33,892 nt of DNA from an uncultured Christensenellaceae bacterium (GTDB lineage Bacteria > Bacillota > Clostridia > Christensenellales > UBA3700), in the NCBI GenBank assembly GCA_944381355.1, contig CALWKV010000077.1, forward strand, positions 1-33,892, written 5' to 3'. Below, one piece after another: positions 1 to 24,635 of the stretch. The first letter of the stretch is position 1, and each line of letters opens with the position of its first letter. The position numbers were made by a program, and so were the translations under genes. The notes under the pieces were generated by a model. The model worked only from the letters and a program-made list of their open reading frames with translations, did not search any database and had not been told where the DNA came from.

Positions 1-295
1 AAGTCCGGGCATCGCAAGGCAGGGTGCCGGCCAGTTACCGGTGAAGGCGACTTCAAGGAAAGTGCAACAGAAATAAACCGCCCGCAAGGGTAAGGATGGA
101 AAGGCGAGGTAAGAGCTCACCGCTCCCTCGGCGACGAGGGAGGCTCTGTAAACCCCACCCGATGCAAGAGAAGACGACATATGCGGTTGCCTGCCGCGTC
201 GGAAAATCGCTTGAGGCGTGTGGCAACATACGTCCTAGACAGATGTTTATCCAAGACAGAACCCGGCTTACAGATTGTCTCGCCCCCTCTGCAAT
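1..295 (+). ncRNA. rnpB: RNase P RNA (type A), 5' part outside window
   Basis: This is the catalytic RNA of ribonuclease P, which removes the 5' leader from pre-tRNA. The sequence shows the conserved GAAAGTGCAACAGAAA block at 58-73, the AGGTAAGAGCTCACCG block at 107-122, the GTAAACCCCACCC segment at about 149-161, and the near-3' universal ACAGAACCCGGCTTA block at 257-271. The arrangement after GTAAACCCCACC, with a long P13/P14-like region and then TAGACAGATG, resembles ancestral type A rather than the Bacillus type B RNA. The 5' part, including one strand of P1 and P4, lies before the window, so the gene is partial here. The 3' end is estimated just before the terminator. Its protein partner RnpA is not in the window, but the RNase P modulator RnpM (YlxR) is, at 24639. 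Confidence 0.95.
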
Positions 296-383: not shown

Positions 384-3300
384 ATGTTAATTTATATGAT
401 TGCCGTGTTTTCGGTACTTGCCGTAATATGTCTGACGGCTCTTGCGGCGCAGAACGCGCGCAAGTTCAATACTTCGCAATACGTTGCGGGAGGCGACGGC
501 TCTGCCAATATCAAGCAGCTTGCCTTGGCGCTCAAAGACGTAGAGAAGGTAGGCGCGGTGCCTGACGTGGGCAAGTCGCTGCGCGCGCTTAACGCCGCGT
601 ATAAATCGGTCGCTGCGAAAGCGGCGGCAGGAGAGCCGCTTTACGAGTGCGAAAAGTGGATATACGAAAACTTCAGATCTGTTACAGTCGGGATCAGACG
701 TTCTGATTTCCGCGCGTTCGCGGCATTGCCGCATAAAGGAGAGGCGAGGGTTATCCATCTCGCCGACGCGATAGTCGCTCAATATTATTGCAGACTGAGT
801 GCTGAAGTGGTCTCCGAAAGCGTGCGGAATTTTTGCAGATATACCCCTCTGACTTTTGACGAATTGTGCGCTCTGAAAGCAGCCTTCGAAGCTGCATTAC
901 TCAAAAAACTCGCTTTTGTTGCGAGAAAAATACGCTTGCTCGAGCGTTCAAAAAAGCGCGCTGAGGAGGACAGAGAACCTGATTTCAGATACTCGAAAAA
1001 AGAAGGGTATCTGTATTATTACAAGGCGACAGGGAAGAAAATACCCGAAAGATTTCTCAGTGCGAACACGTCGGTCAATATCGAAAACGCAGAGTTCGCC
1101 TTTGCGGGCGCCATGACCGATTACGCTAAGACTGCTGAGGCGGCTATAACGTCATTTAAAGCGTTGGACGGCATTTTTACCGTTTCGTTTGTCAATTCTC
1201 TTTCTATGGTCAACGCTCTGTTTGACAGAGATGAGAATTACGCCGGTAGCGACGCTGAGTCAAAGCGTCAGTATCTCGCTGCAGTCGCATCGCTCGCAAG
1301 ATATTTTAATGCGGGCGAATATGCCGTCGCAAAAGGCGCGACCGATCTTGCGGCGCGCTTTGACGTGCATTTCGGCGAGATAATATTCGATCACCGTTAT
1401 GATCTTCGCGCGCATCTCAAAGGAAAATACGTAAAGTCTCTGAAACGCGCGTCGTTTGCCCTCGACAAGGCTGTATATTATGCGTCCGTATTTGCGATTC
1501 AAACGGTATTTTCTGTTGTGTCGGGTATATTTCTGCCCGCAGTATGGCTAAGGATCTGCGTCGCTATTCTGACTTTCGTCGCAAGTTATCCGGCCGCGAC
1601 TTATATTTCTGAAAGGGTCATATCCTTTTTTCTGCCGAGACGACCTGTTCCGAGAATGAATTACGACAGCATACCCGACGAAGGACGAGTAGCGGTGGTC
1701 GTCTCGCACTACCTCGGCGGAGCCGATGACGCGGTAAAAGCTGCCGAAGATCTGCTTGCGCTTCAGGCTGTAAACAGAGACGATAACGCCTGTTATTATT
1801 TGCTGTGCGATCTTCCTGAAAGCGACAGAGAGACCGACCCTGCCGACAGTGCGGTCATAAATGCCCTCGACGCATATTCGGACAGAGATAATTTCGTTAT
1901 TCTCGTAAGAAAGAGAGTCAGGACGGGCAAGAGATACGGCGCGTACGAGAGAAAACGCGGCGCTATTGCAGATTTCAACGGATATATTCTTTCGGGAGAC
2001 GCGGGTAAATTCAGATATGTTTCTGCAGAAAACGGCTTCAGACCGCGTTTTGCGATAACACTCGACGCAGACAGCAGACTAGGCGCGGGAGAGGTCAGGA
2101 CTGCGGTAAACACCGCGTTGCATCCGCTAAACGCAAAATACGGGATATTGGCGTTTACTTCGATATATTCGCTTTCTTCGATCAGAACGCCTTATTCTGA
2201 CAGGTTTGAGGAAAATTCGGGAGCGGAAACCTATTGTAATTACAGCGATTTTTACTTCAATCTTTGCGGAAAGTCGGTATTTTGCGGTAAAGGTATATAC
2301 AAGATAGCGGAATTCCATGAAAAGACTTCCTGCGCCGTGCCCGACGGACGCGTACTCAGTCACGACGTACTCGAAGGAGCGATTACGGATACCGGATTAC
2401 TCAATCTTGCGACGGCAGAGGACGCTCCGGTCAGTTTTGTCAGCGAATCCGCAAGGCGCAGGAGATGGTTGAGGGGAGATCTGCTTTTGTTGCCGTTCGC
2501 AGGCAAAAAGTATTGTCGGGATGGTATTTACAGCTATATCATACTCAAAAACGCGTTCAGCGCGCTGTCGCCGTTGGCTACGGCAGCGTTGTGGTTCCTC
2601 GCGTTGTATTACGGATATTTTTTCTGTTTTGTCGCAGTGTTTTTTGCGTCGTTTGCTGCTGCGGCTGCATCACTTGTCACGACATTCGCGGCGGGAGGAA
2701 GCGCTGAACCTCGAATGTTGTTCGGCCGCGCGATAAAGATTTTGCTCGCCGCGGCGGAACAGGCATTGATTGCTCCGTATTATGCGGTTGAGAATCTTTT
2801 CGTAATAATAAGAACGTTTACCGATTATGTATTCGCATCACGCAATCTTCTGAAGTGGAAGCCTTTCGCACGCTTTCAGTCGGGTGGATCGTACCGTGCT
2901 CACGCGGCAGTCGTACTTCCTTCATGCATTGTCGTTGCCGTCATTGCCGCGACTTTGTACGGCAGCGTCGCGGTCGCTGTGTACGGCACACTTTCGATCG
3001 TTACCGTAAATGCGCTTTACTTCCTCGGCAAACGGAGAGACGACAGACGGACGAACGGAGAGTTCAGAGAAGAACTGACAGAATACGCGAGGCGCACTTT
3101 CGAATATTTCAGACAAGTGTCCGAGGACGCGCTTCCTTGCGACAATATTCAGATATATCCGCAAAACGGCAAGAGCGCGACGACTTCTCCGACGAATATA
3201 GGTTTTACACTGTTGTCGCACGTTTGCGCCGAACAACTCGGATTTGAAAGCACGGAAGAAGCCGTAGGGAAAATAGAAAAACTGCTGTCTGTCTGCGAGA

Positions 3301-6300
3301 AACTTGAAAAATGGGAAGGTCATCTCTACAACTGGTACGACGTTGCGACGACAAAACCCGTCAATCCGTTTTTCATTTCGACCGTAGACAGCGGAAATTT
3401 CGTCGCTGCGCTCATCGTCTGCAAATCCTTTCTTGAAGATAAGGGCTGCGACGCGCTCGCAAAAAGGTGCGCCGCGCTTGCCGACGGAGCCGATTTTACC
3501 GCTCTTACAGACAAATGCGACAAGAAAATGTATATCGGATACAATGTAGGAGCACGAAAATACGAAGGGCATTACGACATGTTGGCAAGCGAGGCAAGAC
3601 TCACGTCGTATCTTGCGTGCGCAAAAAGTTGCGATACAACGTTGTGGAGCGAGTTGTCGAGAGAGCAGGTCTATTCTCACGGCAACGTGCTTTCGTCATG
3701 GTCGGGATCTGCGTTCGAATATCTGATGCCTCAGATCTTTTTGCCCGACGTGCGCAAGTCTCTTATTACAACAAGCGTGAAAAGAGCGTGCAAAACTTTC
3801 GCTTCAAGAAAATGCAACGGTTACTGGGGTATCAGCGAAAGCGGTTATTACGCTTTCGACGCCAATGCAAATTATCAGTACAAGGCTCACGGAATAAGAC
3901 AACTCGCGTTGTCGGGAGAGGACGACAAGTGCGTGATTGCGCCGTACGCATCCGCTCTGGCTCTCAGATACCTGCCGGGAAAAGCTCTTGCAAATCTGAA
4001 AAAACTCGCATCGGGAGGGTGTTACGGCGAATACGGTTTCTATGAAGCTCTTGACTTTACGTCGGGAAAAAATACGGTAAGTTCTCATATGACGCATCAT
4101 CAGGGCATGATACTCTGTGCAATAACGAACGTGCTGGCCGACGACTGCATAGTCAAATATTTTACTGCCGACAGAACGGTTGCGGGTGCAACTCTTATGC
4201 TCGAGGAAAGAGAGATATCGGCGCGTGCGGGCAAAGCCGGAAAAAGCGATTTCGTCTATTCTGAAAATAAAGGGTTTGCTTCGGATATCGAGTTGTCGGA
4301 ATTTCCCGAGACGTGTCTTTTGTACGGCAGAGAGTACGGCGTCGTCATCGACGATTACGGTTCCGGATATTCGAGGTGGCGCGATAAGGATATAAACGTA
4401 TTTTCTCGCGACTTTTACAAAAACAGTGGTCAATACGGGTATTTCATATGCGACGGAGAGAGATTTTCGCCGACATTCGCACCGCTTAAGAAAGACGGAG
4501 GATGTTACAGGACGACGTTTGCTTCTGACTACGCGAGATTCGTAAACACGAAAGATTTTTGCGAAATGAAAGTATACGTACCCGTTATAATCAGCGGCGA
4601 AGTCAGAGAATATACCGTCGAAAACAGATCGGACAAAATCAAGAATTACGAGTTCGTATTCGCAGAGAGGATAGCGATGGCAGGACGAGAAGAATATGCG
4701 TCTCACCCCGCTTTCTGCGATCTGTTTGTCGGGGCGCGCTTCGATAAGGAGAAAAAGACGGTTTATCTTAAACGCAGACCGAGAGAGACGGGCGACGGTT
4801 TTTCGCTCGCCGCTACTATGATTACGGACGCAGAAGTCGTCGCGGAATGCAACAGAAACTATCTTTACGGCAGAAATACAGGCGACGCAAACCCTTTATT
4901 GGCGTTCGGCAGAGAAGAACCGTCGATCGGAGACGTGATCTCACCGTGTCTCGGACTGAAATGCGCTTTTTCGCTGTCGCCGGGGCAGAAAAAGAAAATA
5001 GCCGTCGTCATACAATGCGCAGAGCGTGAAAGCGTGCTGGAGGAAAAAGTGGAACAGGTGCTCGCAACCGACTTCCTGTTTTACGCAAGCCGCCGTCCGA
5101 GAGAGGGCGAACGCGGTCTGTCTGACAAATATCTCAAAGACGAGAGTACAGCGAGATATGCAGGTCGGCTTGCGGCAAAAGTACTTTACGAGCCGTATTC
5201 CGTCGCTTCACTCGCGGCAAGGGCACAATTGCCGCCCAATCTGGTTTTCAGCGAGAAAGCCTTGATCCTGAAATACAACGGCAACGCCGCATTCACTAAA
5301 AAAGCGGTTGCCGCGGCGATAGCGTGCAGGTTGGCGGGAGTAGATCTGAGACTAGTGATAATATACGACGAGCGCGACGTCATGACCGGCGAAACAAAAA
5401 CCGAAATATGCGAAAGGGCGGGGATAAGCGATCTTGCGAGTCTGCATTTCGTTATGTTCGTCGACGAGAGCAGCGTAAAGCCTTCTGATGTCAAAAACCT
5501 GATTTCCGGCGCGTTCTGCGTGCTGAATCAAAAAGTCGCGGATAAAACGGCATGCTGTTCAATAGCAGTAAGAAAAAAAAGAGGAAGTTGTCGCTTTCTT
5601 CCATGCGAAATACCAATGCTTACCGAGTGCGGCAACGGCGGTTTCGATTCAAACGGCGACTACGTGGTGACGAGTCGTCCTTCTGCGCCATATTCAAACG
5701 TAGTATGCGCAAGACTCGGGGGCTTCGTTGCGACCGAAAACGGCGGAGGTTTCAACTATTTTCTCAACAGCAGATCGTATAAACTCAGCGGCTGGAGCAA
5801 CGATCCCGTAGCCGATACGCCTGCGGAGCGCTTTCTGGTGTCAGACGATAACGGCGTTATCCGCGTGAATAAATTGAATAAAGGCGGTTATGTGCGGCAT
5901 AAAAAGGGCGCGACGGAATATTGCTGCAAAACCGAAAGAGCGTATTTCAGACTGAAAAAATCGCTCGCCTGCGACGGCAGAATTATATATTACCGACTTG
6001 ACGTGCGAAATCTGTCCGATGACAGATTGACGCTTAACGTCGGTTGTTATTTCGAGCCGTGCGTTGATTTTGCAGAAAACAGGAGCGACGTTTGCGTCAG
6101 CGAATTCGGCAAAGACGCTGTCAGAGTGTTCAACGTAAAGACGGGCAGAGAGTTTTTCCTGCTTGCTAAGAACAGATACGAGGCGGTGACAGATTACGCA
6201 CAGGTTACTTCGAGAGGGATCAACGGATTCAATCCCAAACGTACGAAGAGCGCGTTCAACAATCCTTACTGCGGCGCGACAGTTGTGCTGACACTTTCAA

Positions 6301-7865
6301 AAAAGAGCGCCGCCGAAGCGGAATTCGCGCTTTGCGACAGCGAAGAAACGCTGGCAATGGCGAGAAGTGCCGATCTGTCTGCCGAAAGCATAAGATGCGC
6401 GCAGACGCTCGCCTCAACGCCGCTGTCGCTCGAAAGCGGAGACCGCAGTCTCGATCTTCTGTTCGGAAATCTGCCGTATCAGGTGCTGTCAAGCAGAATG
6501 AACGGAAGATGCGGATATTATCAGGCGGGCGGCGCGATCGGCTTCAGAGATCAGCTTCAGGATTGTCTCGCTCTCCTGTGGACGTGTCCGGAACGCGTGA
6601 GAGAACATATTCTCCTGTGTGCAGAAAGGCAATATGCCGACGGAGACGTGATGCACTGGTGGCATGCGCCTGCGTTCGGAGTCAGGACGAGAATAACGGA
6701 TGACAGGCTGTTTCTGCCATACGTCGTCTGCGAATACGTCGAGCATACCGGAGACGAGAGCATACTCGCCGAGCAATGCGGTTATCTTGAGGGAGAACCT
6801 CTCGAAAACATGAAAGAAGCGCGTCTCGAACACGGCAAATATTCTGACGTCAGAGAAAGCCTGTTGCTCCATATGCAGAGGGCGATCGACAGCGCAACGG
6901 TGACGGGCGAACACGGATTGCTTCTAATCGGTAGCGGAGACTGGAACGACGCTCTCAACGGCATCGGCATCAGGGGCAGAGGCGAAAGCGTATGGCTGAC
7001 GCAGTTTGCGGTCTGCGTGATAGAAAAATTCTGCAAGTATATCGACTCTGCAAGCGCGAAAAAGTACAGGGCGGTCGCGGCGAGACTGAGGCGCGCGCTC
7101 GAAAAGGCGTATATAGACGGCAGATGGGCAAGAGCGTTCACGGACGACGGCGAGTGGCTGGGCGTAAAAAATTCGCCTGCCTGCAAAACCGATCTCATCT
7201 GTCAATGCTGGGCTGTAATAGCCGGCATAGGAAGCAACGAGGACAGAAAAAGCGCAATGCATGCGGCAAAGTCGCTTGTAGACGAAAAAGCGGGAGCGAT
7301 AAAGCTGTTTTCACCTCCGTTCAGCGGCAAAAAACGCTACGGGTACATCTCGTCTTATCCCGAGGGCGTAAGAGAAAACGGCGGTCAGTACACGCATGCC
7401 GCGGTATGGTATCTGCTCGCGTGTTGCAGAGCGGGCGACAGAGAGGAAGCCAACAGGGCGCTTAAATTGCTCAATCCCGCTGAAAGGTGTGTTGACGTTG
7501 AAAAAAACGCGCGTTACAAGGGCGAGCCTTACGTTCTTGCGGGCGACGTTTATACCAACAAGGACAACGTCGGGCGCGCGGGCTGGACGTGGTATACGGG
7601 CAGCGCGGCATGGCTGTATAAGGTCATCGTCGAAGAAATGCTCGGCGTAAAAAAGCGGGGAGAGGCGCTCGAATTTTCCGCACCTATGCTTGACGGTGCA
7701 GAAAACGCCGTTCTGCGTTATGAATACAAAGGCACGTCATACCTGATTAAATTCGAGAATGCGGGGAAAAAGGGTATCAGAACGGGCGGTGTAAATTATA
7801 CCAACTGTTCGACTCTTGCGCTCAAGGAAAACAGAGGAGAGGTGGAAGTGACGGTGCTGTACTGA
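384..7865 (+). CDS. Cyclic beta-1,2-glucan synthase (NdvB/Cgs type)
   Basis: Membrane enzyme of 2493 aa predicted to polymerise UDP-glucose into beta-1,2-glucan, cyclise it and trim it by phosphorolysis. Residues 1-22 form a hydrophobic anchor. A membrane pair near 360-420 precedes a GT84 glycosyltransferase domain (about 430-720) with DAD at 561-563, HDVLEG at 660-665 and the RxxRW motif ending at W695. More membrane helices follow (about 722-772 and 836-886). A cyclisation domain of the glucoamylase-like/GH189 type (about 930-1260) carries SGYYAFDANANYQYKAHGI and SSHMTHHQGM. The C-terminus is GH94 phosphorylase-like, with HWWHAPAFG near 2092 and GDWND at 2185-2189, where D2186 matches the family general acid. 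Length is a little below the ~2800 aa of Rhizobium/Brucella enzymes. The start is supported by AAGAGGTG at 372-379. It stands alone, with no NdvA-type exporter beside it. Domain identity is strong; product chemistry is inferred from the family. Confidence 0.93.
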   Translation: MLIYMIAVFSVLAVICLTALAAQNARKFNTSQYVAGGDGSANIKQLALALKDVEKVGAVPDVGKSLRALNAAYKSVAAKAAAGEPLYECEKWIYENFRSVTVGIRRSDFRAFAALPHKGEARVIHLADAIVAQYYCRLSAEVVSESVRNFCRYTPLTFDELCALKAAFEAALLKKLAFVARKIRLLERSKKRAEEDREPDFRYSKKEGYLYYYKATGKKIPERFLSANTSVNIENAEFAFAGAMTDYAKTAEAAITSFKALDGIFTVSFVNSLSMVNALFDRDENYAGSDAESKRQYLAAVASLARYFNAGEYAVAKGATDLAARFDVHFGEIIFDHRYDLRAHLKGKYVKSLKRASFALDKAVYYASVFAIQTVFSVVSGIFLPAVWLRICVAILTFVASYPAATYISERVISFFLPRRPVPRMNYDSIPDEGRVAVVVSHYLGGADDAVKAAEDLLALQAVNRDDNACYYLLCDLPESDRETDPADSAVINALDAYSDRDNFVILVRKRVRTGKRYGAYERKRGAIADFNGYILSGDAGKFRYVSAENGFRPRFAITLDADSRLGAGEVRTAVNTALHPLNAKYGILAFTSIYSLSSIRTPYSDRFEENSGAETYCNYSDFYFNLCGKSVFCGKGIYKIAEFHEKTSCAVPDGRVLSHDVLEGAITDTGLLNLATAEDAPVSFVSESARRRRWLRGDLLLLPFAGKKYCRDGIYSYIILKNAFSALSPLATAALWFLALYYGYFFCFVAVFFASFAAAAASLVTTFAAGGSAEPRMLFGRAIKILLAAAEQALIAPYYAVENLFVIIRTFTDYVFASRNLLKWKPFARFQSGGSYRAHAAVVLPSCIVVAVIAATLYGSVAVAVYGTLSIVTVNALYFLGKRRDDRRTNGEFREELTEYARRTFEYFRQVSEDALPCDNIQIYPQNGKSATTSPTNIGFTLLSHVCAEQLGFESTEEAVGKIEKLLSVCEKLEKWEGHLYNWYDVATTKPVNPFFISTVDSGNFVAALIVCKSFLEDKGCDALAKRCAALADGADFTALTDKCDKKMYIGYNVGARKYEGHYDMLASEARLTSYLACAKSCDTTLWSELSREQVYSHGNVLSSWSGSAFEYLMPQIFLPDVRKSLITTSVKRACKTFASRKCNGYWGISESGYYAFDANANYQYKAHGIRQLALSGEDDKCVIAPYASALALRYLPGKALANLKKLASGGCYGEYGFYEALDFTSGKNTVSSHMTHHQGMILCAITNVLADDCIVKYFTADRTVAGATLMLEEREISARAGKAGKSDFVYSENKGFASDIELSEFPETCLLYGREYGVVIDDYGSGYSRWRDKDINVFSRDFYKNSGQYGYFICDGERFSPTFAPLKKDGGCYRTTFASDYARFVNTKDFCEMKVYVPVIISGEVREYTVENRSDKIKNYEFVFAERIAMAGREEYASHPAFCDLFVGARFDKEKKTVYLKRRPRETGDGFSLAATMITDAEVVAECNRNYLYGRNTGDANPLLAFGREEPSIGDVISPCLGLKCAFSLSPGQKKKIAVVIQCAERESVLEEKVEQVLATDFLFYASRRPREGERGLSDKYLKDESTARYAGRLAAKVLYEPYSVASLAARAQLPPNLVFSEKALILKYNGNAAFTKKAVAAAIACRLAGVDLRLVIIYDERDVMTGETKTEICERAGISDLASLHFVMFVDESSVKPSDVKNLISGAFCVLNQKVADKTACCSIAVRKKRGSCRFLPCEIPMLTECGNGGFDSNGDYVVTSRPSAPYSNVVCARLGGFVATENGGGFNYFLNSRSYKLSGWSNDPVADTPAERFLVSDDNGVIRVNKLNKGGYVRHKKGATEYCCKTERAYFRLKKSLACDGRIIYYRLDVRNLSDDRLTLNVGCYFEPCVDFAENRSDVCVSEFGKDAVRVFNVKTGREFFLLAKNRYEAVTDYAQVTSRGINGFNPKRTKSAFNNPYCGATVVLTLSKKSAAEAEFALCDSEETLAMARSADLSAESIRCAQTLASTPLSLESGDRSLDLLFGNLPYQVLSSRMNGRCGYYQAGGAIGFRDQLQDCLALLWTCPERVREHILLCAERQYADGDVMHWWHAPAFGVRTRITDDRLFLPYVVCEYVEHTGDESILAEQCGYLEGEPLENMKEARLEHGKYSDVRESLLLHMQRAIDSATVTGEHGLLLIGSGDWNDALNGIGIRGRGESVWLTQFAVCVIEKFCKYIDSASAKKYRAVAARLRRALEKAYIDGRWARAFTDDGEWLGVKNSPACKTDLICQCWAVIAGIGSNEDRKSAMHAAKSLVDEKAGAIKLFSPPFSGKKRYGYISSYPEGVRENGGQYTHAAVWYLLACCRAGDREEANRALKLLNPAERCVDVEKNARYKGEPYVLAGDVYTNKDNVGRAGWTWYTGSAAWLYKVIVEEMLGVKKRGEALEFSAPMLDGAENAVLRYEYKGTSYLIKFENAGKKGIRTGGVNYTNCSTLALKENRGEVEVTVLY

Positions 7866-9268: not shown

Positions 9269-10021
9269 ATGCTTGAAATAACCAATCTCGTAAAAAAGTA
9301 CAAAAACAGCGAAAAGCTGGCGGTAAACGACGTTTCGCTGACCGTGGGCGAAGGCGAAGTTTTCGGCTTTCTCGGACCAAACGGCGCAGGTAAATCCACG
9401 ACGATCAAGTGCGCATGCGGCATTCTTCCTTTCGACTCGGGCAGCATAAGGATATGCGGCAGGAGCATAAAGGACGAGCCGATTGCCGCCAAGAAGAATA
9501 TCGGCTACGTATCTGACAATCATGCGCTTTACGACAGGCTGACGGCGAGAGAATATCTCAATTTCGTCTGCGACATATACGGTGTAGGACTAAACGACAG
9601 AAAGACGCGCGCAGACAAATATCTGTCTCTTTTCGGGCTTGCCGACGCGTACGATACGCCGATAAAGTCGTATTCGCACGGTATGAAACAGAAGATATGC
9701 GTTATCGGCGCGCTTATCCACAATCCCAAGCTGTGGATACTCGACGAGCCTATGACGGGTCTGGACCCGAAATCCGCTTTCGAGCTTAAAGAGCTGATGA
9801 AAGAGCATTGCAAAGAGGGCAACAGCGTGTTTTTCAGTTCGCACGTGCTCGAAGTCGTTGAAAAAGTCTGCGACAAGGTCGCTATAGTAGACGGCGGGAA
9901 GCTCATCGCTTCTTTCGATATAGCCGATCTCAGGACTATGAAGGACAACAAGTCTCTCGAGGACGTGTTCCTCTCTCTTACCGAGGACAAACCGCAGAGC
10001 GGAGATATAAAATTCGACTGA
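9269..10021 (+). CDS. ABC transporter ATP-binding protein
   Basis: Nucleotide-binding subunit of an ABC-2 type exporter, 250 aa. Walker A GPNGAGKST is at residues 36-44, the signature appears as YSHGMKQK (a common variant of LSGGQ in this subfamily) near 131-138, Walker B is LWILDEPMTGLD and the H-loop is SSHVLE. An AAAGGA ribosome-binding site lies about 8 nt upstream at 9256-9261. Its TGA is followed by the permease ATG after one base, so the two are translationally coupled and form one transporter. The substrate cannot be read from the sequence; homologues include drug, bacteriocin and lipid exporters. The location between rarA and ruvX gives no clear functional hint. Confidence 0.93.
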   Translation: MLEITNLVKKYKNSEKLAVNDVSLTVGEGEVFGFLGPNGAGKSTTIKCACGILPFDSGSIRICGRSIKDEPIAAKKNIGYVSDNHALYDRLTAREYLNFVCDIYGVGLNDRKTRADKYLSLFGLADAYDTPIKSYSHGMKQKICVIGALIHNPKLWILDEPMTGLDPKSAFELKELMKEHCKEGNSVFFSSHVLEVVEKVCDKVAIVDGGKLIASFDIADLRTMKDNKSLEDVFLSLTEDKPQSGDIKFD

Positions 10022-10022
10022 T

Positions 10023-11726
10023 ATGAGACAGTTCTTTACGCTTTTCAAACTCAATTTCAGATACTATACCTTGCCCGATTTTTCGGATAAGAAGTCAAGG
10101 AACAAGTATATCGGGATCATCGTTCTGCTCGGCGTATGTTTTCTGTTGCCGATAGCGGGTCTGTTCATGACTTTGTACGCGACTGCGACGCTCGCTTTTC
10201 AGCAGGGCGGAACGGTAGAAATGCTCTCGGGTGTATTCTGCATATCGCAGATATCGGTACTGTTCCTGAGTGCGTTTTCCTATATATCCTCGATGTTTTT
10301 TGCCAAGGACAACGAAATCATGCTCAATCTGCCCGTGCCGCAGACCACCGTGTTTTTCAGCAAACTGCTCGTGAGTTACGTCAACGAACTGCTTATATCC
10401 ACGATAATAGTGTTGCCTGCTTCGGTGATAACCGCTGTCGCGGCGGCGCAGGCGGGAGTCGCGCTCGGCGTCGGGTTCTATCTGCTGATACCCGTTGCGG
10501 TATTGCTTCTGCCTTTGCTTCCAATGCTGATACTTTCGATCGTCTCTTTTCCGATAGCGGTAGTGATACAGAAGCTAAGTAAACGTCCCGTGCTCGGCGC
10601 GATCGTGCAGGCGGTGTTTCTCATCGCTTTTATAGCCGCGATATATTATGTATCTTATTCTACGTCCTATTCGGCAGGAGAAGGCACAGGCAACGCGGTC
10701 GATATAGAAAAAATGTTCGCGCCCATGGCGAAAGTCAACGTGTTCACGACCATGCTTTCCAAGGCTATGTTCGGTATAAGCGCCGTAGGCAACTTTTTCG
10801 CGTTTGCAGGTTCGACCGTCGGATTCGCGCTCGTCGCAGCAGGACTTTCGGTGCTTTTCTATAAAAAAGCGCTTCAGAGTTCCGTTGAAGGCGGAGCAGG
10901 GAAAAAACGCGTGGTAAAAGAGATCAGAGAGGCAGGGGTCAGGTCTGCGGACAAAGCGTTCGTGATGACGGATATCAGGTATCTGCTCAGAGACAGCGCG
11001 GTGACGGTCAATACCATTCTTTCGCTCGTAATGCCCGCGCTTCTCGTATTCCTTTGCACCTTCATGACGTCGCGCTCGATAGAGTCGTCCGTGCAGGCAG
11101 CCGCGGAAGCGGGAGGGAGCGCAGAGACGCAGGCGTTTATGTCGACGCCTTATATGTCGCTTGCGCTGTCTGTGATGATGGCGGGTTGGTTCTGTTCGGG
11201 CACGAATCTTTTCTCGACGGTAGGCTTCAGCTTAGAGCGTGAAAACTTCGCGGTGATAAAGACTTTACCGCTTTCGTTTGAAAAGATATATTATTCAAAA
11301 CTCGGAGCGGCAACGGTCGTGACCGTCGTGTCCTCCGTACTCGCCGCAGTCGTCACCGTGGTCGTATCCAAACTGACGGTATGGGACTTTTTGCTGATGT
11401 CGATACTGCTTTCGGTATACGGCGCCGCCGTCAACGCGTTCGCGCTTCTGCGAGACCTGAAGGCGCCGCGTTTCAACTGGGTCACGGTAAAAGAGCTGAC
11501 TAAAAACAATTTCCATACGCTGATACCCATGCTTGTCTCCGTTGCGGGAATGATACCCGTGATAATAGTTGCGTTCGTCTGCGCGTTCGTCGAGTCTTTC
11601 TCTGACTTTGCGCGCTCGGCGATGATCTGGGGCGCGTTCGCGGCGGTGGACATCGTGTTTGTCATGTTGTTCCTTTTCAGATCGGGCGACAAGGCGGTAA
11701 AATATTTTGAGGAGTGTGAATGCTGA
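10023..11726 (+). CDS. ABC-2 type transporter permease (putative ABC exporter family)
   Basis: Integral membrane partner of the preceding ATPase, 567 aa, with roughly 12 hydrophobic segments. Clear ones lie around residues 29-55, 68-92, 110-175, 190-212, 250-285, 325-345, 375-395 and several between 425 and 560. A soluble charged loop (GAGKKRVVKEIREAGVRS) splits the protein near residue 300, giving a two-halves layout typical of the large putative ABC exporter permeases of Firmicutes. No good Shine-Dalgarno sits at the usual distance: the nearest GGAG at 10001 is 18 nt away. Translation therefore probably depends on coupling to the upstream gene. Its end overlaps the start of ruvX. Substrate unknown. 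Confidence 0.85.
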   Translation: MRQFFTLFKLNFRYYTLPDFSDKKSRNKYIGIIVLLGVCFLLPIAGLFMTLYATATLAFQQGGTVEMLSGVFCISQISVLFLSAFSYISSMFFAKDNEIMLNLPVPQTTVFFSKLLVSYVNELLISTIIVLPASVITAVAAAQAGVALGVGFYLLIPVAVLLLPLLPMLILSIVSFPIAVVIQKLSKRPVLGAIVQAVFLIAFIAAIYYVSYSTSYSAGEGTGNAVDIEKMFAPMAKVNVFTTMLSKAMFGISAVGNFFAFAGSTVGFALVAAGLSVLFYKKALQSSVEGGAGKKRVVKEIREAGVRSADKAFVMTDIRYLLRDSAVTVNTILSLVMPALLVFLCTFMTSRSIESSVQAAAEAGGSAETQAFMSTPYMSLALSVMMAGWFCSGTNLFSTVGFSLERENFAVIKTLPLSFEKIYYSKLGAATVVTVVSSVLAAVVTVVVSKLTVWDFLLMSILLSVYGAAVNAFALLRDLKAPRFNWVTVKELTKNNFHTLIPMLVSVAGMIPVIIVAFVCAFVESFSDFARSAMIWGAFAAVDIVFVMLFLFRSGDKAVKYFEECEC

Positions 11727-12133
11727 TGAGACATCTTTGTATCGATCTCGGAGACGTGCGCATAGGGCTTGCTACAAGCGACAGTATGGGGATCTGCGCT
11801 ACGGGACTGGAAACTTACCGTCGCGTGGAGCCGCAAAAGGATATAGAATATATCGCGTCGATCGTAAAGCGCGAAAACATAGGCAGGGTCGTTATCGGTT
11901 TGCCCGTAAATATGGACGGTACGAGCGGAGAGAGAGTTGAAAAAGCGAAAGCGTTCGGAGAAGAACTTAGTAAATTCGTCGATGCGGAGATTGCCTATCA
12001 GGACGAGAGACTTTCTACGGTCGCGGGCGAAAGAATGCTTATAGAGGCGGGAATGCGCCGCGACAAGCGCAAAAAAGTCATAGACAAGATCGCGGCGACG
12101 ATAATTCTGCAAACTTATCTGGATTCTCATTAA
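11720..12133 (+). CDS. ruvX: Putative pre-16S rRNA nuclease / Holliday junction resolvase-like RuvX (YqgF)
   Basis: RNase H-fold nuclease of the YqgF family, 137 aa, implicated in 16S rRNA 5'-end maturation and possibly branched DNA processing. It shows the family's first acidic motif CIDLGDVRIGLA (Asp at residue 9), the GLPVNMDGT turn, YQDERLST and the C-terminal IDKIAATIILQTYLD. The start could be ATG 11720 or 11726. GAGGAG at 11709-11714 favours 11720, which overlaps the permease stop by 7 nt, while the family's usual MR... start would fit 11726. It is followed by the DUF1292 gene, the same ruvX-DUF1292 pairing seen in Bacillus (yrrK-yrzB), which supports both calls. Confidence 0.92.
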   Translation: MLMRHLCIDLGDVRIGLATSDSMGICATGLETYRRVEPQKDIEYIASIVKRENIGRVVIGLPVNMDGTSGERVEKAKAFGEELSKFVDAEIAYQDERLSTVAGERMLIEAGMRRDKRKKVIDKIAATIILQTYLDSH

Positions 12134-20067: not shown

Positions 20068-21099
20068 ATGACAAGAAAGGTTAAAATCGGCAAAATTACG
20101 ATAGGCGGCGGCGAAAAGATAGCCGTTCAGTCCATGACGAACATTAAGACGAGCGATATCGACGCTACGGTAGCTCAGCTTGCCGCTCTCGAAAAGGCGG
20201 GGTGCGATATCGCAAGATGTTCCGTGCCTGACAACGCGAGTGCAGAAGCCCTCAGAGAGATCGTGGCAAGCACTTCAATGCCGATCGTCGCCGATATACA
20301 TTTCGATTACAGGCTCGCCGTAAAGGCGGCTGACGCGGGCGCGGCAAAGATAAGGATCAACCCCGGGAACATAGGCGACGAAAGCAAGGTGGAATATCTC
20401 GCAAAATATCTCAAGGAAAGAGAAATACCCGTGCGTATCGGCGTGAACGGCGGCTCTCTCGACAAGAAATATAAGAATATTCCTCTTGCCGAAGCTATGT
20501 GCGAAAGCGCGCTCGAACACGTATCCCTGCTCGAAAAGCACGGTTTTTACGACATCGTGATATCCGTCAAATCGTCTGACGTCGTGAATACCGTCAAGGC
20601 ATACAGACTTCTTGCGTCAAAGTGCGATTATCCGCTGCACGTAGGCGTGACCGAAGCGGGCATATACGAAAAAGGACTTATAAAGTCGGCTATAGGTATA
20701 GGGTCTTTGCTATGCGACGGGATAGGCGACACCGTGCGCGTTTCGCTTACCGACGATCCCGTCAAAGAGGTCTATGCGGCGAAGGAGATACTCAAGGCGG
20801 TCAACCGTTATGACGGAGCTTACGCCGAGGTAGTCTCGTGCCCCACATGCGCGAGGACTTGCATCGACGTGCAGGGCATAGCCACTCAGGTCGAAGAATA
20901 TGCGCGCAAACTTGACAAGAGCGTAAAGATTGCGGTAATGGGCTGCGTGGTGAACGGCATTGGAGAATCCGAAGGCTGCGACGTGGGCGTTGCGGGAGGA
21001 AAGGACAAGTCCGTCATTTTCAGAGAAGGAAAGATCATCGCGACCGTTCCCAATTCCGAGATACTGAACGCGCTGATAAAAGAGATTGACAGAATATAG
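20068..21099 (+). CDS. ispG: 4-hydroxy-3-methylbut-2-en-1-yl diphosphate synthase (IspG/GcpE)
   Basis: [4Fe-4S] enzyme of the MEP pathway that converts MEcPP to HMBPP. 343 aa, the short bacterial form with no inserted domain. N-terminal TIM barrel (VQSMTNIKTSD, DIHFDYRLA, KIRINPGNIGDE); C-terminal cluster domain with C258, C261 and C293 (SCPTCART and MGCVVNGIGE), and E300 as the fourth ligand, all at the spacing of known enzymes. It takes the slot between rseP and polC where Bacillus has proS, as in many Clostridia. No convincing terminator follows in the 153-nt gap. Confidence 0.97.
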   Translation: MTRKVKIGKITIGGGEKIAVQSMTNIKTSDIDATVAQLAALEKAGCDIARCSVPDNASAEALREIVASTSMPIVADIHFDYRLAVKAADAGAAKIRINPGNIGDESKVEYLAKYLKEREIPVRIGVNGGSLDKKYKNIPLAEAMCESALEHVSLLEKHGFYDIVISVKSSDVVNTVKAYRLLASKCDYPLHVGVTEAGIYEKGLIKSAIGIGSLLCDGIGDTVRVSLTDDPVKEVYAAKEILKAVNRYDGAYAEVVSCPTCARTCIDVQGIATQVEEYARKLDKSVKIAVMGCVVNGIGESEGCDVGVAGGKDKSVIFREGKIIATVPNSEILNALIKEIDRI

Positions 21100-21252: not shown

Positions 21253-22839
21253 ATGACTGACGACAAAAAGATCAAAGGTACAGAGGGCAAAACCGATTTC
21301 ATCAGACTGCTTAACATACGCTTCGACGGAGCGTACGATTTCTTGCGTGTGCGCTCGGTCGACCTCGATCTCGAGGCAAAGACGGTGTCGGTGCAGATAG
21401 GAGTTCCGTATTTGGGCGGTAAAGATCTGACCGAAGAAGATAAGAAAAAAATATTGTCTTTTGCGATCGAAATTCTGCCTTCGGAATATACCGTGTCGAT
21501 ATCTTACAGAAAATTCGGAGTGGACAGAGATATCGTCTTTAAACTGATTAAAGAATACGTCAACAAGTATCACAGAGCGTATTCCGTACTGCTGTCCAGC
21601 GACAATACCGACATCGTCTGCGACGAAAAACGTGTCGAGATAACTTTTACCGTGGTCAAGTCGGTCGGCGATCTGTTTGAAAAGTGCGGACTTCTCGTCG
21701 GGTTGAAAGAATATCTCGATTCTTCTTACGACAGGGAAAATGCGGTAAAACTTGAGTATACCGACAAGTTTATTATTTCGGAGACGGCAAAAGAAGAAGT
21801 GCCCGTCGTCATCGACGATTGCTATATCGAGATAGGCGCGCTACACAAACTTTGCGGAGGGGAGATCACGTCGAAAGCCCGTTACATACGCGCGTGCAAG
21901 ACGCCCCAGTCGGCAATATGCGTGACGGGAAAGGTCGAGAGCATAATCGCGAAAAATTCAAAGTCGAGCGGCAATCTTTATTACAATTTTACGATCAACG
22001 ACACCACGGGAGTCATGCGTTGCTGCTATTTTACGAGAAAAGCGGCAAAAGGTCCTCTGGACATTCTCGAAGAAGGCAGCGAGATAGCCGTCATGGGAGA
22101 TCTTCAGAACGACTCTTTCCGCGGCGGACTTTCGCTTATAGCAAAAAGCGTAAGCTTGTGCAAGATTAATTATTCTTCGATACTTTCCGATGAGGATCTG
22201 AGACGCAAAAAGACTTACGTGCCGATAAAAGCCAAGCCGCTGGATATCACTACGCAACAGGATATTTTCGACTTCGCGGCAGAAAAACCCTCTTATCTCA
22301 CGGATAATGTGTTCGTTGTGTTCGACCTCGAGACCACGGGACTTATAGACAACGGTGTACCGTGCAAGATCATCGAGATAGGCGCGGTTAAGATAGTCGG
22401 CGGCGTGTGTACAGAGTATTTTTCGACACTCGTGGATCCTGAAATGCACATACCCGAGGGAGCTTCCGCAACCAACCATATATACGACGATATGGTGGAG
22501 GACGCGCCTGTCATAGAGGACGTTTTGCCTGATTTTCTCGCATGGGTCGGCAATGCGGTGCTCGTGGCGCACAACGGCGACAAGTTCGATTTCATCGTTC
22601 TGCGCAACGTTGCGGCAGAACAGGGCATGACCGTGCCTAACCGTACAAAAGATACGATCGTGCTTGCTCAGGCTTATCGCAACGTTACGGGCAGGAGAGG
22701 ACAACTCAATCTGCGCGTGCTCAGTAAGGAGTTCGGAATAGAACTCGTGGAGGCGCACAGGGCGTATTACGACGCATATGCCACGGCGCAGCTTTTTATC
22801 AAACTCTGCGATTACGTAGATCCGTCAAGGATCGGTTGA
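21253..22839 (+). CDS. PolC-derived protein: N-terminal region + OB fold + DEDDh exonuclease, no polymerase
   Basis: 528 aa at the exact polC position (after rseP/ispG, before rimP-nusA). Residues about 1-200 resemble the divergent PolC N-terminal region. About 215-305 form the PolC OB fold (TGKVESIIAKNSKSSGNLYY, TINDTTGVMRCCYF, GDLQNDSFRGGLSLIA). About 350-525 are a DnaQ-like exonuclease with all DEDDh residues: D358 and E360 (FDLETTG), D446 (AHNGDKFDF), H502 and D507 (HRAYYDA). In PolC the exonuclease sits inside a PHP domain followed by the polymerase and finger domains. Here a linker of about 45 residues replaces the first PHP part, and the protein stops after the exonuclease. It could proofread in trans for a polymerase encoded elsewhere, or act as a nuclease in repair or RNA turnover. 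No Shine-Dalgarno precedes the ATG. A terminator follows at 22906. Confidence 0.9.
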   Translation: MTDDKKIKGTEGKTDFIRLLNIRFDGAYDFLRVRSVDLDLEAKTVSVQIGVPYLGGKDLTEEDKKKILSFAIEILPSEYTVSISYRKFGVDRDIVFKLIKEYVNKYHRAYSVLLSSDNTDIVCDEKRVEITFTVVKSVGDLFEKCGLLVGLKEYLDSSYDRENAVKLEYTDKFIISETAKEEVPVVIDDCYIEIGALHKLCGGEITSKARYIRACKTPQSAICVTGKVESIIAKNSKSSGNLYYNFTINDTTGVMRCCYFTRKAAKGPLDILEEGSEIAVMGDLQNDSFRGGLSLIAKSVSLCKINYSSILSDEDLRRKKTYVPIKAKPLDITTQQDIFDFAAEKPSYLTDNVFVVFDLETTGLIDNGVPCKIIEIGAVKIVGGVCTEYFSTLVDPEMHIPEGASATNHIYDDMVEDAPVIEDVLPDFLAWVGNAVLVAHNGDKFDFIVLRNVAAEQGMTVPNRTKDTIVLAQAYRNVTGRRGQLNLRVLSKEFGIELVEAHRAYYDAYATAQLFIKLCDYVDPSRIG

Positions 22840-23015: not shown

Positions 23016-23042
23016 ATATACACAAGATAGTATTGATTTACT

Positions 23043-23064
23043 AAGCGGCTGACATCAGTCGCTT
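23043..23064 (+). promoter_or_regulatory. rimP leader hairpin
   Basis: A 9-bp stem with a 4-nt loop (AAGCGGCTG with CAGTCGCTT, one G-U pair) lies in the predicted leader, ending 9 nt before AAGGAG (23074-23079). Structured rimP leaders are known in other Firmicutes. I cannot say this is the same motif. Confidence 0.45.
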
Positions 23065-23084
23065 ATGTTATATAAGGAGAATAT

Positions 23085-23549
23085 ATGTCTAAGATCTGCG
23101 ACAGCGTCACCGCGCTCATATTACCGATACTCGAGAAAATGAATATCGAACTGGTTGAGGTCGAGTTCAAAAAACGTGGAGAGCAATGCGATCTGACCGT
23201 CTTTATCGACAAGGACGGAGGCGTTTCTCTCGACGATTGCGAAGCGGTACACAATGCGATAGACGCGCCGCTCGACGATCTGGATCCGACAGGCGGCAAA
23301 CCCTATACGCTCAACGTTTCGTCGCCCGGTCTCGACAGACCTTACAAGACGCTTCGCGATTACCGCAAGCACATAGGAGAGGAGACCGAGTTTTCTCTCT
23401 TCAAGCCGATAGAAGGCGTCAAGAAGTTCGAGGCGGTGATCAAGAACGTCGATGACGACTTCACTACGGTTACCGTAGACCTGAAAGGTAAAACCATACA
23501 ACTAAATATAAAAGAGATAGCCCTCGCGAGAGCGGTTATCAAGTTCTAG
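23085..23549 (+). CDS. rimP: Ribosome maturation factor RimP
   Basis: Helps assembly of the 30S subunit. 154 aa, the normal size. N-terminal domain with IELVEVEFKKRGEQCDLTVFIDKDGG and SLDDCEAVHNAID, then the signature YTLNVSSPGLDRPYKTLRDY, and a C-terminal SH3-like domain ending IQLNIKEIALARAVIKF. AAGGAG at 23074-23079 sets the start. nusA begins 9 nt after its stop, the universal rimP-nusA pair, and this gene heads a ten-gene run to 31722. Confidence 0.96.
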   Translation: MSKICDSVTALILPILEKMNIELVEVEFKKRGEQCDLTVFIDKDGGVSLDDCEAVHNAIDAPLDDLDPTGGKPYTLNVSSPGLDRPYKTLRDYRKHIGEETEFSLFKPIEGVKKFEAVIKNVDDDFTTVTVDLKGKTIQLNIKEIALARAVIKF

Positions 23550-23558
23550 GAGGACAAA

Positions 23559-24635
23559 ATGATTAACAAGGACTTTTTTCTTGCGCTCGATTTGCTTGAA
23601 AAAGAAGGAAAAATCGACAAAGAATTGACGATCAAGTCGCTTGAAGCCGCTATTGCCGCGGCGTACAAGAGAGAATCCGGCGAAGCGCGCCCCGTCAGCG
23701 TGCAGATCGACGAACAGCGCAACCGCATCAGGATCGTCGCTTATCAGGAAGTTGTCGAGACCGTCGAAGATCCCGACAAAGAGATCTCTCTCGAGGACGC
23801 AAAGGCGATAAAGTCGTCTTATAAGGTAGGCGACCGCGTTACGGAAGAAATATCTCCCAAGGATTTCAGCCGTATCGACGCGCAGACCGCAAAGCAGGTC
23901 TTTATGCAGAGACTGATGGACGAGCACAAGAAAATCACCTTGGAAGATATGACCCAGAAAGAGGGTGAGATCGTCACCGCGCAGATCAGAAGAATCGACG
24001 GAGACAGGATCTACCTCGACATTTCGGGTTCTCAGATGGAAGGCGTGATGATGCCTCAGGATCAGGTCAAAGGCGAGATCTACAAGCAGGGCGACGTGCT
24101 CAAAGTCTACGTCAAGAATATCCGCACCGACTTCAAGGGCGGCTCTCAGGTTATGGTTTCCAGATCGCACAGAGATTTTGTCAAGAGACTCTTTGAAATG
24201 GAAGTGCCCGAGATCAAATCAGGTCTCGTCAAGATCAGAAAGATCGTCAGAGAGGCGGGATACAGAACGAAGATGGCGGTTTATTCCGACGATCCGAGCG
24301 TTGACGCAGTCGGCAGCTGTATCGGTCAGAGAGGCATGAGAATAAACGGCATAGTCGGGGAGCTTAACGGCGAGAAAATCGACGTCATCGGCTGGTGTTC
24401 CGATCCGCTTGAATACATTGCAAGAGCGCTCAGCCCCGCCAAAGTGCTGATGGTGCAGGTCAACGATGAAGAAAAGAGCGCAAAGGCTATCGTTGCGGAC
24501 GACAAACTCTCGCTCGCTATAGGCAAGCAGGGACAGAACGTTCGTCTCGCGGCAAAACTTACCGAGTGGAAGATTGACGTAAAACCGTATTCTTCCGTCG
24601 AGAACATGGTCGGAAGCGGCGACGGAGAGGAGTAA
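23559..24635 (+). CDS. nusA: Transcription termination/antitermination factor NusA
   Basis: Binds RNA polymerase and nascent RNA and modulates pausing and termination. 358 aa, the short Gram-positive form without the C-terminal acidic repeats of E. coli. N-terminal RNAP-binding domain about 1-125, S1 domain about 130-200 (EGEIVTAQIRRIDGDRIYLD), KH1 with VPEIKSGLVKIRKIVREAG and CIGQRGMRI, and KH2 ending LAIGKQGQNVRLAAKLT. TAGGAGGA precedes the ATG. The rnpM GTG start comes 3 nt after its stop. Confidence 0.97.
   Translation: MINKDFFLALDLLEKEGKIDKELTIKSLEAAIAAAYKRESGEARPVSVQIDEQRNRIRIVAYQEVVETVEDPDKEISLEDAKAIKSSYKVGDRVTEEISPKDFSRIDAQTAKQVFMQRLMDEHKKITLEDMTQKEGEIVTAQIRRIDGDRIYLDISGSQMEGVMMPQDQVKGEIYKQGDVLKVYVKNIRTDFKGGSQVMVSRSHRDFVKRLFEMEVPEIKSGLVKIRKIVREAGYRTKMAVYSDDPSVDAVGSCIGQRGMRINGIVGELNGEKIDVIGWCSDPLEYIARALSPAKVLMVQVNDEEKSAKAIVADDKLSLAIGKQGQNVRLAAKLTEWKIDVKPYSSVENMVGSGDGEE

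What the first reader, a model, noticed from the sequence alone, without database searches (positions are those of the whole stretch)
21253..22839. Polymerase-less PolC at the polC locus: N-terminal region, OB fold and intact proofreading exonuclease only
Seen: a 528-aa reading frame between rseP-ispG and rimP-nusA, where Firmicutes carry polC, with a PolC-like OB fold (QNDSFRGGLSLIA, like QNDTF...LIAND in PolC) and a complete DEDDh exonuclease (D358, E360, D446, H502, D507). The PHP and polymerase parts are absent, and a terminator closes the gene, so this is not a gene simply cut by the window. Known: in PolC the exonuclease is embedded in the PHP domain and followed by the polymerase. Inference: either the lineage split or lost its PolC polymerase and kept a stand-alone proofreading/OB module acting in trans (with a DnaE-type or second PolC enzyme), or the module was repurposed as a nuclease. 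Conservation of every catalytic residue argues against decay.
Basis: partly seen in the sequence, partly recalled or inferred. Interest (0 to 1): 0.82.

Follow-up and report, generated by a model that had tools for sequence, protein, structure and literature searches.

The report
Proofreader left behind by vanished PolC
A large branch of mostly gut bacteria, likely relatives of Christensenella, carries at the site of the gene for the replication enzyme PolC only PolC's front and proof-reading parts, apparently the remains of a PolC whose DNA-copying part was lost; this remnant likely now corrects errors made by the one remaining replicase, DnaE, from a short peptide predicted to hook it to the sliding clamp.

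Summary
Window 21253-22839 encodes a 528-aa protein: PolC N-terminal domain, OB fold and DEDDh exonuclease, at the polC locus, without PHP or polymerase. It is neither an assembly accident nor decay. In 297 genomes of the order (Christensenellales, inferred from record names), 150 list a short form; of these 133 have one C-family polymerase match (DnaE), none has three or more. The 93 genomes with three or more matches (mostly DnaE plus PolC read in pieces) are not among the 150. In a 42-genome tree one branch with support 1.0 separates PolC from short-form genomes: probably one origin. The PHP half between OB and exonuclease is replaced by a flexible linker with a conserved beta-clamp-binding pentapeptide (QQDIF in the window): exact in 70 of 101 divergent representatives, 1.04 on average after shuffling. 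Catalytic residues are intact in 122 of 128 distinct copies; the six dead copies, from two lineages, all lack the exact pentapeptide. Best reading: a PolC-derived, epsilon-like proofreader tethered to the clamp and acting in trans on DnaE1. DnaE's own PHP site is intact in 29 of 29 readable sequences, so this is not a rescue of a dead PHP. My literature searches listed no description. The proofreading function is inferred, not shown.

The parts
21253..22839 (+). short PolC-derived protein, 528 aa plus stop
   Evidence: relatives
21292..21822 (+). N-terminal domain (res. 14-190), PolC-NTD-like; predicted as two alpha-beta halves (about 8-90 and 91-171), possibly KH-like
   Evidence: hhalign prob 87.5, E 3.6e-6 to PolC NTD; model pLDDT 80; structure matches weak and mixed
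21835..22167 (+). OB fold (res. 195-305)
   Evidence: Pfam PF13742/PF01336; hhalign prob 99.3 to PolC OB; matches G. kaustophilus PolC 3f2b
22168..22290 (+). linker (res. 306-346) standing where PolC has the first half of its PHP domain
   Evidence: no profile match to that PHP half, E 0.29; 333-338 is low confidence in the model
22255..22269 (+). predicted beta-clamp-binding pentapeptide QQDIF (res. 335-339)
   Evidence: Qxx[LIM]F in this linker in 70 of 101 divergent representatives; shuffled linkers mean 1.04, max 6
22309..22812 (+). DEDDh 3'-5' exonuclease domain (res. 353-520), PolC type
   Evidence: Pfam PF00929; PDB 2p1j and 9qpc PolC; tree
22324..22332 (+). catalytic D358 and E360
22588..22590 (+). 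catalytic D446
22756..22773 (+). catalytic H502 and D507
20068..21099 (+). ispG, left neighbour (same place as beside full polC)
23085..23549 (+). rimP, right neighbour
23559..24635 (+). nusA
   Evidence: Pfam NusA_N and KH_5; synteny

Best explanation
The gene encodes the N-terminal, OB and exonuclease parts of PolC at the polC locus without its PHP and polymerase parts, and it likely works as a detached proofreading subunit that would remove mispaired 3' ends made by the sole replicase DnaE1 while predicted to be held on the beta clamp by the pentapeptide QQDIF. Inferred history: PolC was dismantled in place once, in an ancestor of much of this order; half of the PHP domain was replaced by a flexible linker in which a clamp-binding motif arose, making up for the motif lost with PolC's C-terminus; DnaE1 took over all replication. 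Shown: gene make-up, locus, clade-wide conservation, absence of PolC-type polymerase matches from the listed short-form genomes, intact catalytic residues, conserved motif. Predicted: clamp binding and exonuclease activity. Inferred: the partner (DnaE1) and the role (proofreading). The result would work like the alpha-beta-epsilon complex of E. coli but was built from PolC parts.
For: Same locus: ispG is the neighbour of full polC in 10 of 12 PolC loci (rimP found on the other side in 7) and of the short form in 18 of 18 loci (rimP in 13). PolC origin: profile-profile prob 100, E 4e-67 over residues 33-525; by domain; short-form exonucleases branch among PolC exonucleases. Exclusion: of 297 order genomes 150 list a short form, with 0/1/2 PF07733 matches in 4/133/13 and three or more in none; the 93 genomes with three or more are not among them. 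In the 13 with two, four are one DnaE in two pieces and nine have a small second frame, none PolC-sized. One origin: bipartition support 1.0, 42 genomes, up to 15 genes. Selection: dN/dS 0.038 to the nearest relative. Clamp motif: 70 of 101 representatives, shuffles mean 1.04, max 6; it fits the consensus QxxLF in PMC12309361 (passages). Motif and catalysis go together: 86 of 122 live and 0 of 6 dead copies have the exact motif. Precedents: PolC exonuclease proofreads B. subtilis DnaE in trans (PMC5627055, passages); E. coli epsilon uses a clamp motif beside its catalytic domain (PMC3642679, passages); Firmicutes DnaE1 keeps a conserved putative epsilon-binding patch (PMC3919608, section on the PHP site read).
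Against: DnaE in the clade keeps a full PHP metal site (HHDHEHCDH in 29 of 29 readable sequences), so a second proofreader is not strictly needed. The exact motif is missing in 31 of 101 representatives; 25 of those have a live exonuclease, including parts of the window's own family. Six copies from two lineages have lost catalysis but keep the N-terminal and OB parts, which points to a further role. G009, same genus, shows neither a short form nor a PolC match in a 92% complete assembly. No interaction or activity was tested. The live-versus-dead comparison counts related sequences and rests on two loss events. The direction (loss, not gain) rests on PolC being usual in Clostridia, as the tree has no outside root.
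Confidence: 0.72

Rival explanations
1. The remnant is a clamp-associated exonuclease re-used for repair or for trimming of 3' ends (or for RNA), not for proofreading of DnaE1.
For: DnaE1 already has an intact PHP site. Related DEDDh exonucleases serve many roles, and structure hits include DinG, ExoX, TREX and ERI proteins. The clamp motif alone would also suit a repair nuclease.
Against: Descent from a replicase proofreader at the replicase locus, conserved across about half of the sampled order; in B. subtilis the PolC exonuclease already proofreads DnaE in trans (PMC5627055, passages).
Confidence: 0.17
2. The N-terminal pair and OB fold are the essential part (a connector to the clamp loader, primosome or DnaE), and the exonuclease is a dispensable passenger.
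For: Six copies in two lineages keep N-terminal and OB parts with a dead exonuclease. PolC's N-terminal domain has been proposed to interact with the clamp loader (PMC3919608, passages).
Against: In 122 of 128 distinct copies the exonuclease keeps its catalytic residues, and against the nearest relative it is the most constrained part (dN/dS 0.023 against 0.04-0.07 elsewhere). The N-terminal domain is among the least conserved parts.
Confidence: 0.09
3. Decaying gene fragment, or an assembly deletion within a normal polC.
For: Single draft genome, 78% complete; G009 lacks it.
Against: 42 short-form ORFs in 59 genomes (the window's own and its relatives), each ending soon after the exonuclease except L081, which is cut by the contig end; dN/dS 0.038; no PolC-type polymerase match in the genome.
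Confidence: 0.01

Closest known systems
PolC, C-family DNA polymerase III (NCBIfam NF001688 and TIGR01405; PDB 9qpc, 3f2b, 2p1j)
   Same: Locus, N-terminal domain, OB fold and DEDDh exonuclease; profile alignment with order-level PolC over residues 33-525
   Different: No PHP domain, no polymerase, no helix-hairpin-helix, no C-terminal clamp motif; the clamp-like motif sits in the linker before the exonuclease
DnaQ / epsilon subunit of E. coli DNA polymerase III
   Same: Separate DEDDh proofreader beside a DnaE1 alpha subunit, with a clamp-binding motif beside the catalytic domain (epsilon: QTSMAF just after it; PMC3642679, passages)
   Different: Derived from PolC; motif before the exonuclease; extra N-terminal pair and OB fold; only 13 residues follow the Pfam exonuclease match, so an epsilon-like alpha-binding tail has no room there; scores far below the DnaQ equivalog cut-off (60.7 of 196 bits)
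PolC of B. subtilis proofreading DnaE in trans
   Same: A PolC exonuclease acting on DnaE's product (PMC5627055, passages)
   Different: There it is a domain of a working polymerase and DnaE is of type E3; here the polymerase is gone and DnaE has an intact PHP site
PolC variants lacking the exonuclease in Clostridia (PMC3919608, passages)
   Same: Domain loss from PolC in the same class
   Different: The mirror image: there the polymerase stays and the exonuclease goes

Membership tests
PolC DNA polymerase | N-terminal domain followed by OB fold | tested here: met
   OB prob 99.3; NTD only prob 87.5, E 3.6e-6
PolC DNA polymerase | DEDDh exonuclease of PolC type | tested here: met
PolC DNA polymerase | PHP domain enclosing the exonuclease | tested here: not met
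   no PHP match in P0001 or among the families listed for 41 relatives; linker has no similarity to the PHP half
PolC DNA polymerase | polymerase core (PF07733, PF17657) and helix-hairpin-helix | tested here: not met
   absent from the protein; PF07733 elsewhere in the genome only in a DnaE
DnaQ / epsilon subunit | DEDDh catalytic residues in a separate protein | tested here: met
   above the broad dnaq domain cut-off, 91.2 against 71.5 bits
DnaQ / epsilon subunit | orthologue of validated DnaQ (equivalog models) | tested here: not met
   PRK05711 60.7 of 196 bits, TIGR01406 66.6 of 222.7; the tree places the domain among PolC exonucleases
DnaQ / epsilon subunit | clamp-binding motif beside the exonuclease | tested here: met
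   sequence motif only: 70 of 101 representatives; binding not tested
DnaQ / epsilon subunit | binds the DnaE alpha subunit and proofreads | not testable with these tools
   needs biochemistry or complex prediction
DinG / DEDD-helicase proteins | helicase domain after the exonuclease | tested here: not met
   protein ends 13 residues after the Pfam exonuclease match

The most novel reading that the evidence does not exclude
A third way to proofread in bacteria: a lineage dismantled its second replicase, PolC, in place and rebuilt the remains into a new epsilon-like subunit for DnaE1, creating a clamp-binding motif where the PHP half used to be. Later, in two sub-lineages, the nuclease died together with the motif and only the N-terminal/OB scaffold was kept, as a non-catalytic replisome part.
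Probability: 0.6. Interest if true: 0.87.

Novelty: new variant of a known kind. Interest (0 to 1): 0.8.

Why it matters
Why many Clostridia keep both PolC and DnaE1, and whether DnaE1 could replicate a genome alone there, is an open question raised in PMC3919608 (passages). This clade looks like a natural experiment: the PolC polymerase is gone, its proofreader stayed. It suggests that the exonuclease serving DnaE was the part of PolC that was hardest to lose, and it offers a candidate partner for the conserved putative epsilon-binding patch of Firmicutes DnaE1 (PMC3919608), for which I know of no epsilon (recalled). It also shows how a clamp-binding motif can arise anew after domain loss. 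A side prediction: these bacteria lack the target of PolC inhibitors such as ibezapolstat.

Tried and rejected
Compensation for a dead PHP proofreader in DnaE: rejected, HHDHEHCDH is intact in 29 of 29 readable DnaE sequences (11 from PolC genomes, 18 others including G009, which has no detected short form; G053 is cut at its N-terminus).

Split PolC with the polymerase half elsewhere: rejected for the window's genome (one PF07733 match). For the 13 listed short-form genomes with two PF07733 matches, one search shows one DnaE in two pieces in four (G095, G114, G134, G172) and a second small frame in nine (270-408 aa in eight, 807 aa in G270). I looked at two of these nine (G270, G126): both are nearer to DnaE models than to PolC. 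Of the 93 genomes with three or more matches I did not check each; G254 (family f16) is probably a DnaE cut by contig ends plus a DnaE-like fragment, not a PolC genome.

Horizontal acquisition of an unrelated nuclease at the site: rejected by synteny and by PolC homology over most of the length. In the exonuclease tree the short forms are one bipartition with only 0.619 support, and 'short forms plus PolC versus other exonucleases' was not a clean bipartition, because one very divergent PolC exonuclease (L072, G045) groups with the others.

Spread outside the order: in 245 genomes drawn from the class, 11 match at E <= 1e-70; 9 are short forms, all of this order, and 2 are full PolC frames (1426 and 1477 aa). 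Divergent short forms such as that of G052 (1.2e-68) would be missed at that threshold.

Rows dropped: L081 (cut by the contig end) was left out of A1, so 41 of 42 short forms were used. Two of 44 genomes with under 500 aligned residues were left out of the tree, and PolC genomes G038 and G045 were not given to it. Of 133 short forms 128 are distinct and 101 are representatives under 70% identity. The cross-table uses only what one search printed: 150 genomes, down to E 8e-71, two of them partial (G145, G286); weaker matches were not printed. Its handles were copied by hand. Entry 2 of my notebook gives the synteny count for PolC loci as 11 of 12; the count is 10 of 12 with ispG, 7 with both neighbours.

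Full report
What is there. Window 21253-22839 is a 528-aa ORF between ispG and rimP-nusA-infB. Pfam finds an exonuclease (355-515) and an OB fold (210-300), plus overlapping weaker exonuclease and OB families, and no PHP or polymerase. The best NCBIfam model is PolC, but far below its cut-off (138 of 873 bits) and matched mainly over the exonuclease. By sequence, the nearest solved structures are the T. maritima PolC exonuclease 2p1j and the PolC structure 9qpc; by fold, 9qpc leads in Foldseek and ties within 1 Z unit with DinG and E. coli epsilon in the second aligner. The model has mean pLDDT 83.5 but pTM only 0.45, so domain placement is uncertain.

Distribution. Of 59 genomes (the window's own and relatives), 42 gave a short form and 11 a full PolC at first pass. 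G052 (549-aa frame, dead exonuclease) and G045 (1476-aa frame holding a divergent exonuclease) followed with the profile search. G039 shows a 1158-aa frame with both OB-region and polymerase matches. G009, G029 and G032 remain without either. In 297 genomes drawn from the order, 150 list a short form in the printed part of the table, two of them partial. These have 0, 1 or 2 polymerase matches (4, 133, 13) and never three or more; the 93 genomes with three or more are not among them. Those 93 are mostly DnaE plus PolC read in pieces; G254 probably is not. Among the 13 with two matches, four are one DnaE in two pieces, and nine have a small second frame; the two I examined are DnaE-like. In the class-wide draw all nine short forms belong to this order. 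Record titles of matching public contigs include uncultured Christensenella, Christensenellaceae and Candidatus Coproplasma; PMC8035907 places Coproplasma in Christensenellales, Borkfalkiaceae (passage). That the window's order is Christensenellales is inferred from this.

History. The short form sits where polC sits: ispG is the neighbour of polC in 10 of 12 PolC loci and of the short form in 18 of 18. A tree of 42 genomes from up to 15 neighbouring genes separates 10 PolC genomes from 32 short-form genomes by one branch with support 1.0. Because PolC is usual in Clostridia (PMC3919608, PMC12926913, passages), a single loss of the PHP and polymerase parts is the simplest reading; the tree has no outside root, so direction rests on that. 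Short-form exonucleases form one group beside PolC exonucleases (support 0.619). dN/dS to the nearest relative (G008) is 0.038 overall and 0.023 for the exonuclease, at dS 1.2; more distant pairs are near or past saturation.

The clamp motif. The linker just before the exonuclease carries Qxx[LIM]F: QQDIF in the window, exact in 11 of 12 members of the genus in A1 and in 70 of 101 representatives under 70% identity. Shuffling each linker gives 1.04 on average and at most 6 in 1000 trials; the rest of these proteins (about 48,600 residues) holds 12 such strings. Among the 95 representatives with a live exonuclease the aligned positions read Q in 80, L/M/I in 85 and F in 81. The common bacterial clamp-binding consensus is QL[S/D]LF or QxxLF (PMC12309361, passage). 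PolC itself has QxSLF near its C-terminus, which the short form lacks. In the model, residues 333-338 are below pLDDT 50, as expected for a flexible tether. Several branches of the window's own family have lost the Q or the F.

Catalysis and motif together. 122 of 128 distinct short forms keep all five DEDDh residues. Six do not (L082, L227, L228, L232 of family f16; L229, L231 of f19); members of these two families lie apart in the tree. None of the six has the exact motif, against 86 of 122 live ones (Fisher p 0.001, which ignores relatedness; two loss events). They keep the N-terminal and OB parts, so that part may have a role of its own.

The partner. The remaining polymerase is a DnaE; the one scanned (G012) has PHP, polymerase, fingers, HhH and OB domains. 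Its PHP metal site is intact in every readable case, 29 of 29, and 15 of 19 DnaE sequences labelled as the short-form group (G009 included) have their own internal clamp motif; of the four without, G000's is cut by a contig end. So the clade seems to have a DnaE1-only replicase with two clamp-binding subunits, as E. coli has in alpha and epsilon (PMC3642679, passages).

Mechanism proposed. Shown: domain make-up, position, conservation, absence of PolC-type polymerase matches. Predicted: exonuclease activity and clamp binding. Inferred: the clamp, bound by DnaE1 through one pocket and by the remnant through the other, brings the exonuclease to the primer end. The precedent is that B. subtilis PolC proofreads DnaE in trans in a stable complex (PMC5627055, passages), so the remnant may have kept an old job after the polymerase went.

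Literature. Searches (PMC open-licence library only) listed no description of a polymerase-less PolC. The one listed paper that holds both PolC and Christensenellales (PMC10266427) uses polC only as a tree marker (passage). PMC3919608 notes that some Clostridia have a single DnaE1 and that some PolCs lack the exonuclease (passages). PMC12926913 surveys proofreaders in over 3000 complete genomes; the 12 of 14 retrieved places that were shown do not mention this form. Database names are 'hypothetical protein', 'exonuclease domain-containing protein' or 'DNA polymerase III epsilon subunit family exonuclease'. I read passages, one section and listings, no paper in full.

Noticed in passing
L233:903-3320 (G270) and L235:1467-3677 (G254): Proteins of 806 and 737 aa that join a metallo-beta-lactamase / RNase J-like part to a shortened DnaE-type polymerase palm (PF12706 plus partial PF07733). 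An odd nuclease-polymerase fusion in two families of the order.
   Followed up: partly
L234:962-2038 (G126); similar frames of 270-408 aa in G156, G164, G202, G211, G225, G280, G303: Small DnaE-type palm/finger fragments beside a full DnaE; only that of G126 was scanned.
   Followed up: partly
window 1-286 (+): Bacterial RNase P RNA class A, cut at the window's start (Rfam RF00010).
   Followed up: no
window 384-7865 (+): 2493-aa protein with GH94 catalytic and supersandwich domains and a glucoamylase-like domain, like cyclic beta-glucan synthases (recalled).
   Followed up: no
L082:7275-8786, L227, L228, L232 (family f16); L229, L231 (family f19): Short forms with degenerate exonuclease residues and no exact clamp motif, but N-terminal and OB parts kept.
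   Followed up: partly
L072 (G045:C12): Full-length PolC frame with a very divergent exonuclease domain (92.5 bits against 147-208 for the other PolCs); none of the window's neighbour genes was found around it.
   Followed up: partly
G253:C31, G146:C1, G159:C3, G095:C1 (family f14, genus g58): Short-form reading frames of 596-759 aa, longer than the usual 500-560; a possible N-terminal extension.
   Followed up: no
G076, G097, G160, G226, G236 (family f16, genus g45): Only weak matches to the short-form profile (1e-28 to 1e-68), and one or two DnaE-type matches: perhaps further decay of the remnant.
   Followed up: no
L091, L092, L093, L120 (DnaE of G000, G012, G004, G009): DnaE of the window's genus has a lysine- and glutamate-rich N-terminal extension before PHP (PHP starts at residue 65 in G012, 11 in G035).
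   Followed up: no
L090 about 9893-11923 (G017): About 2 kb between the short form and rimP, where the other loci have a short gap.
   Followed up: no
window 23042-23065: 10-bp hairpin about 20 bp before the rimP start, followed by a weak T-rich tail; it could be a leader structure.
   Followed up: no
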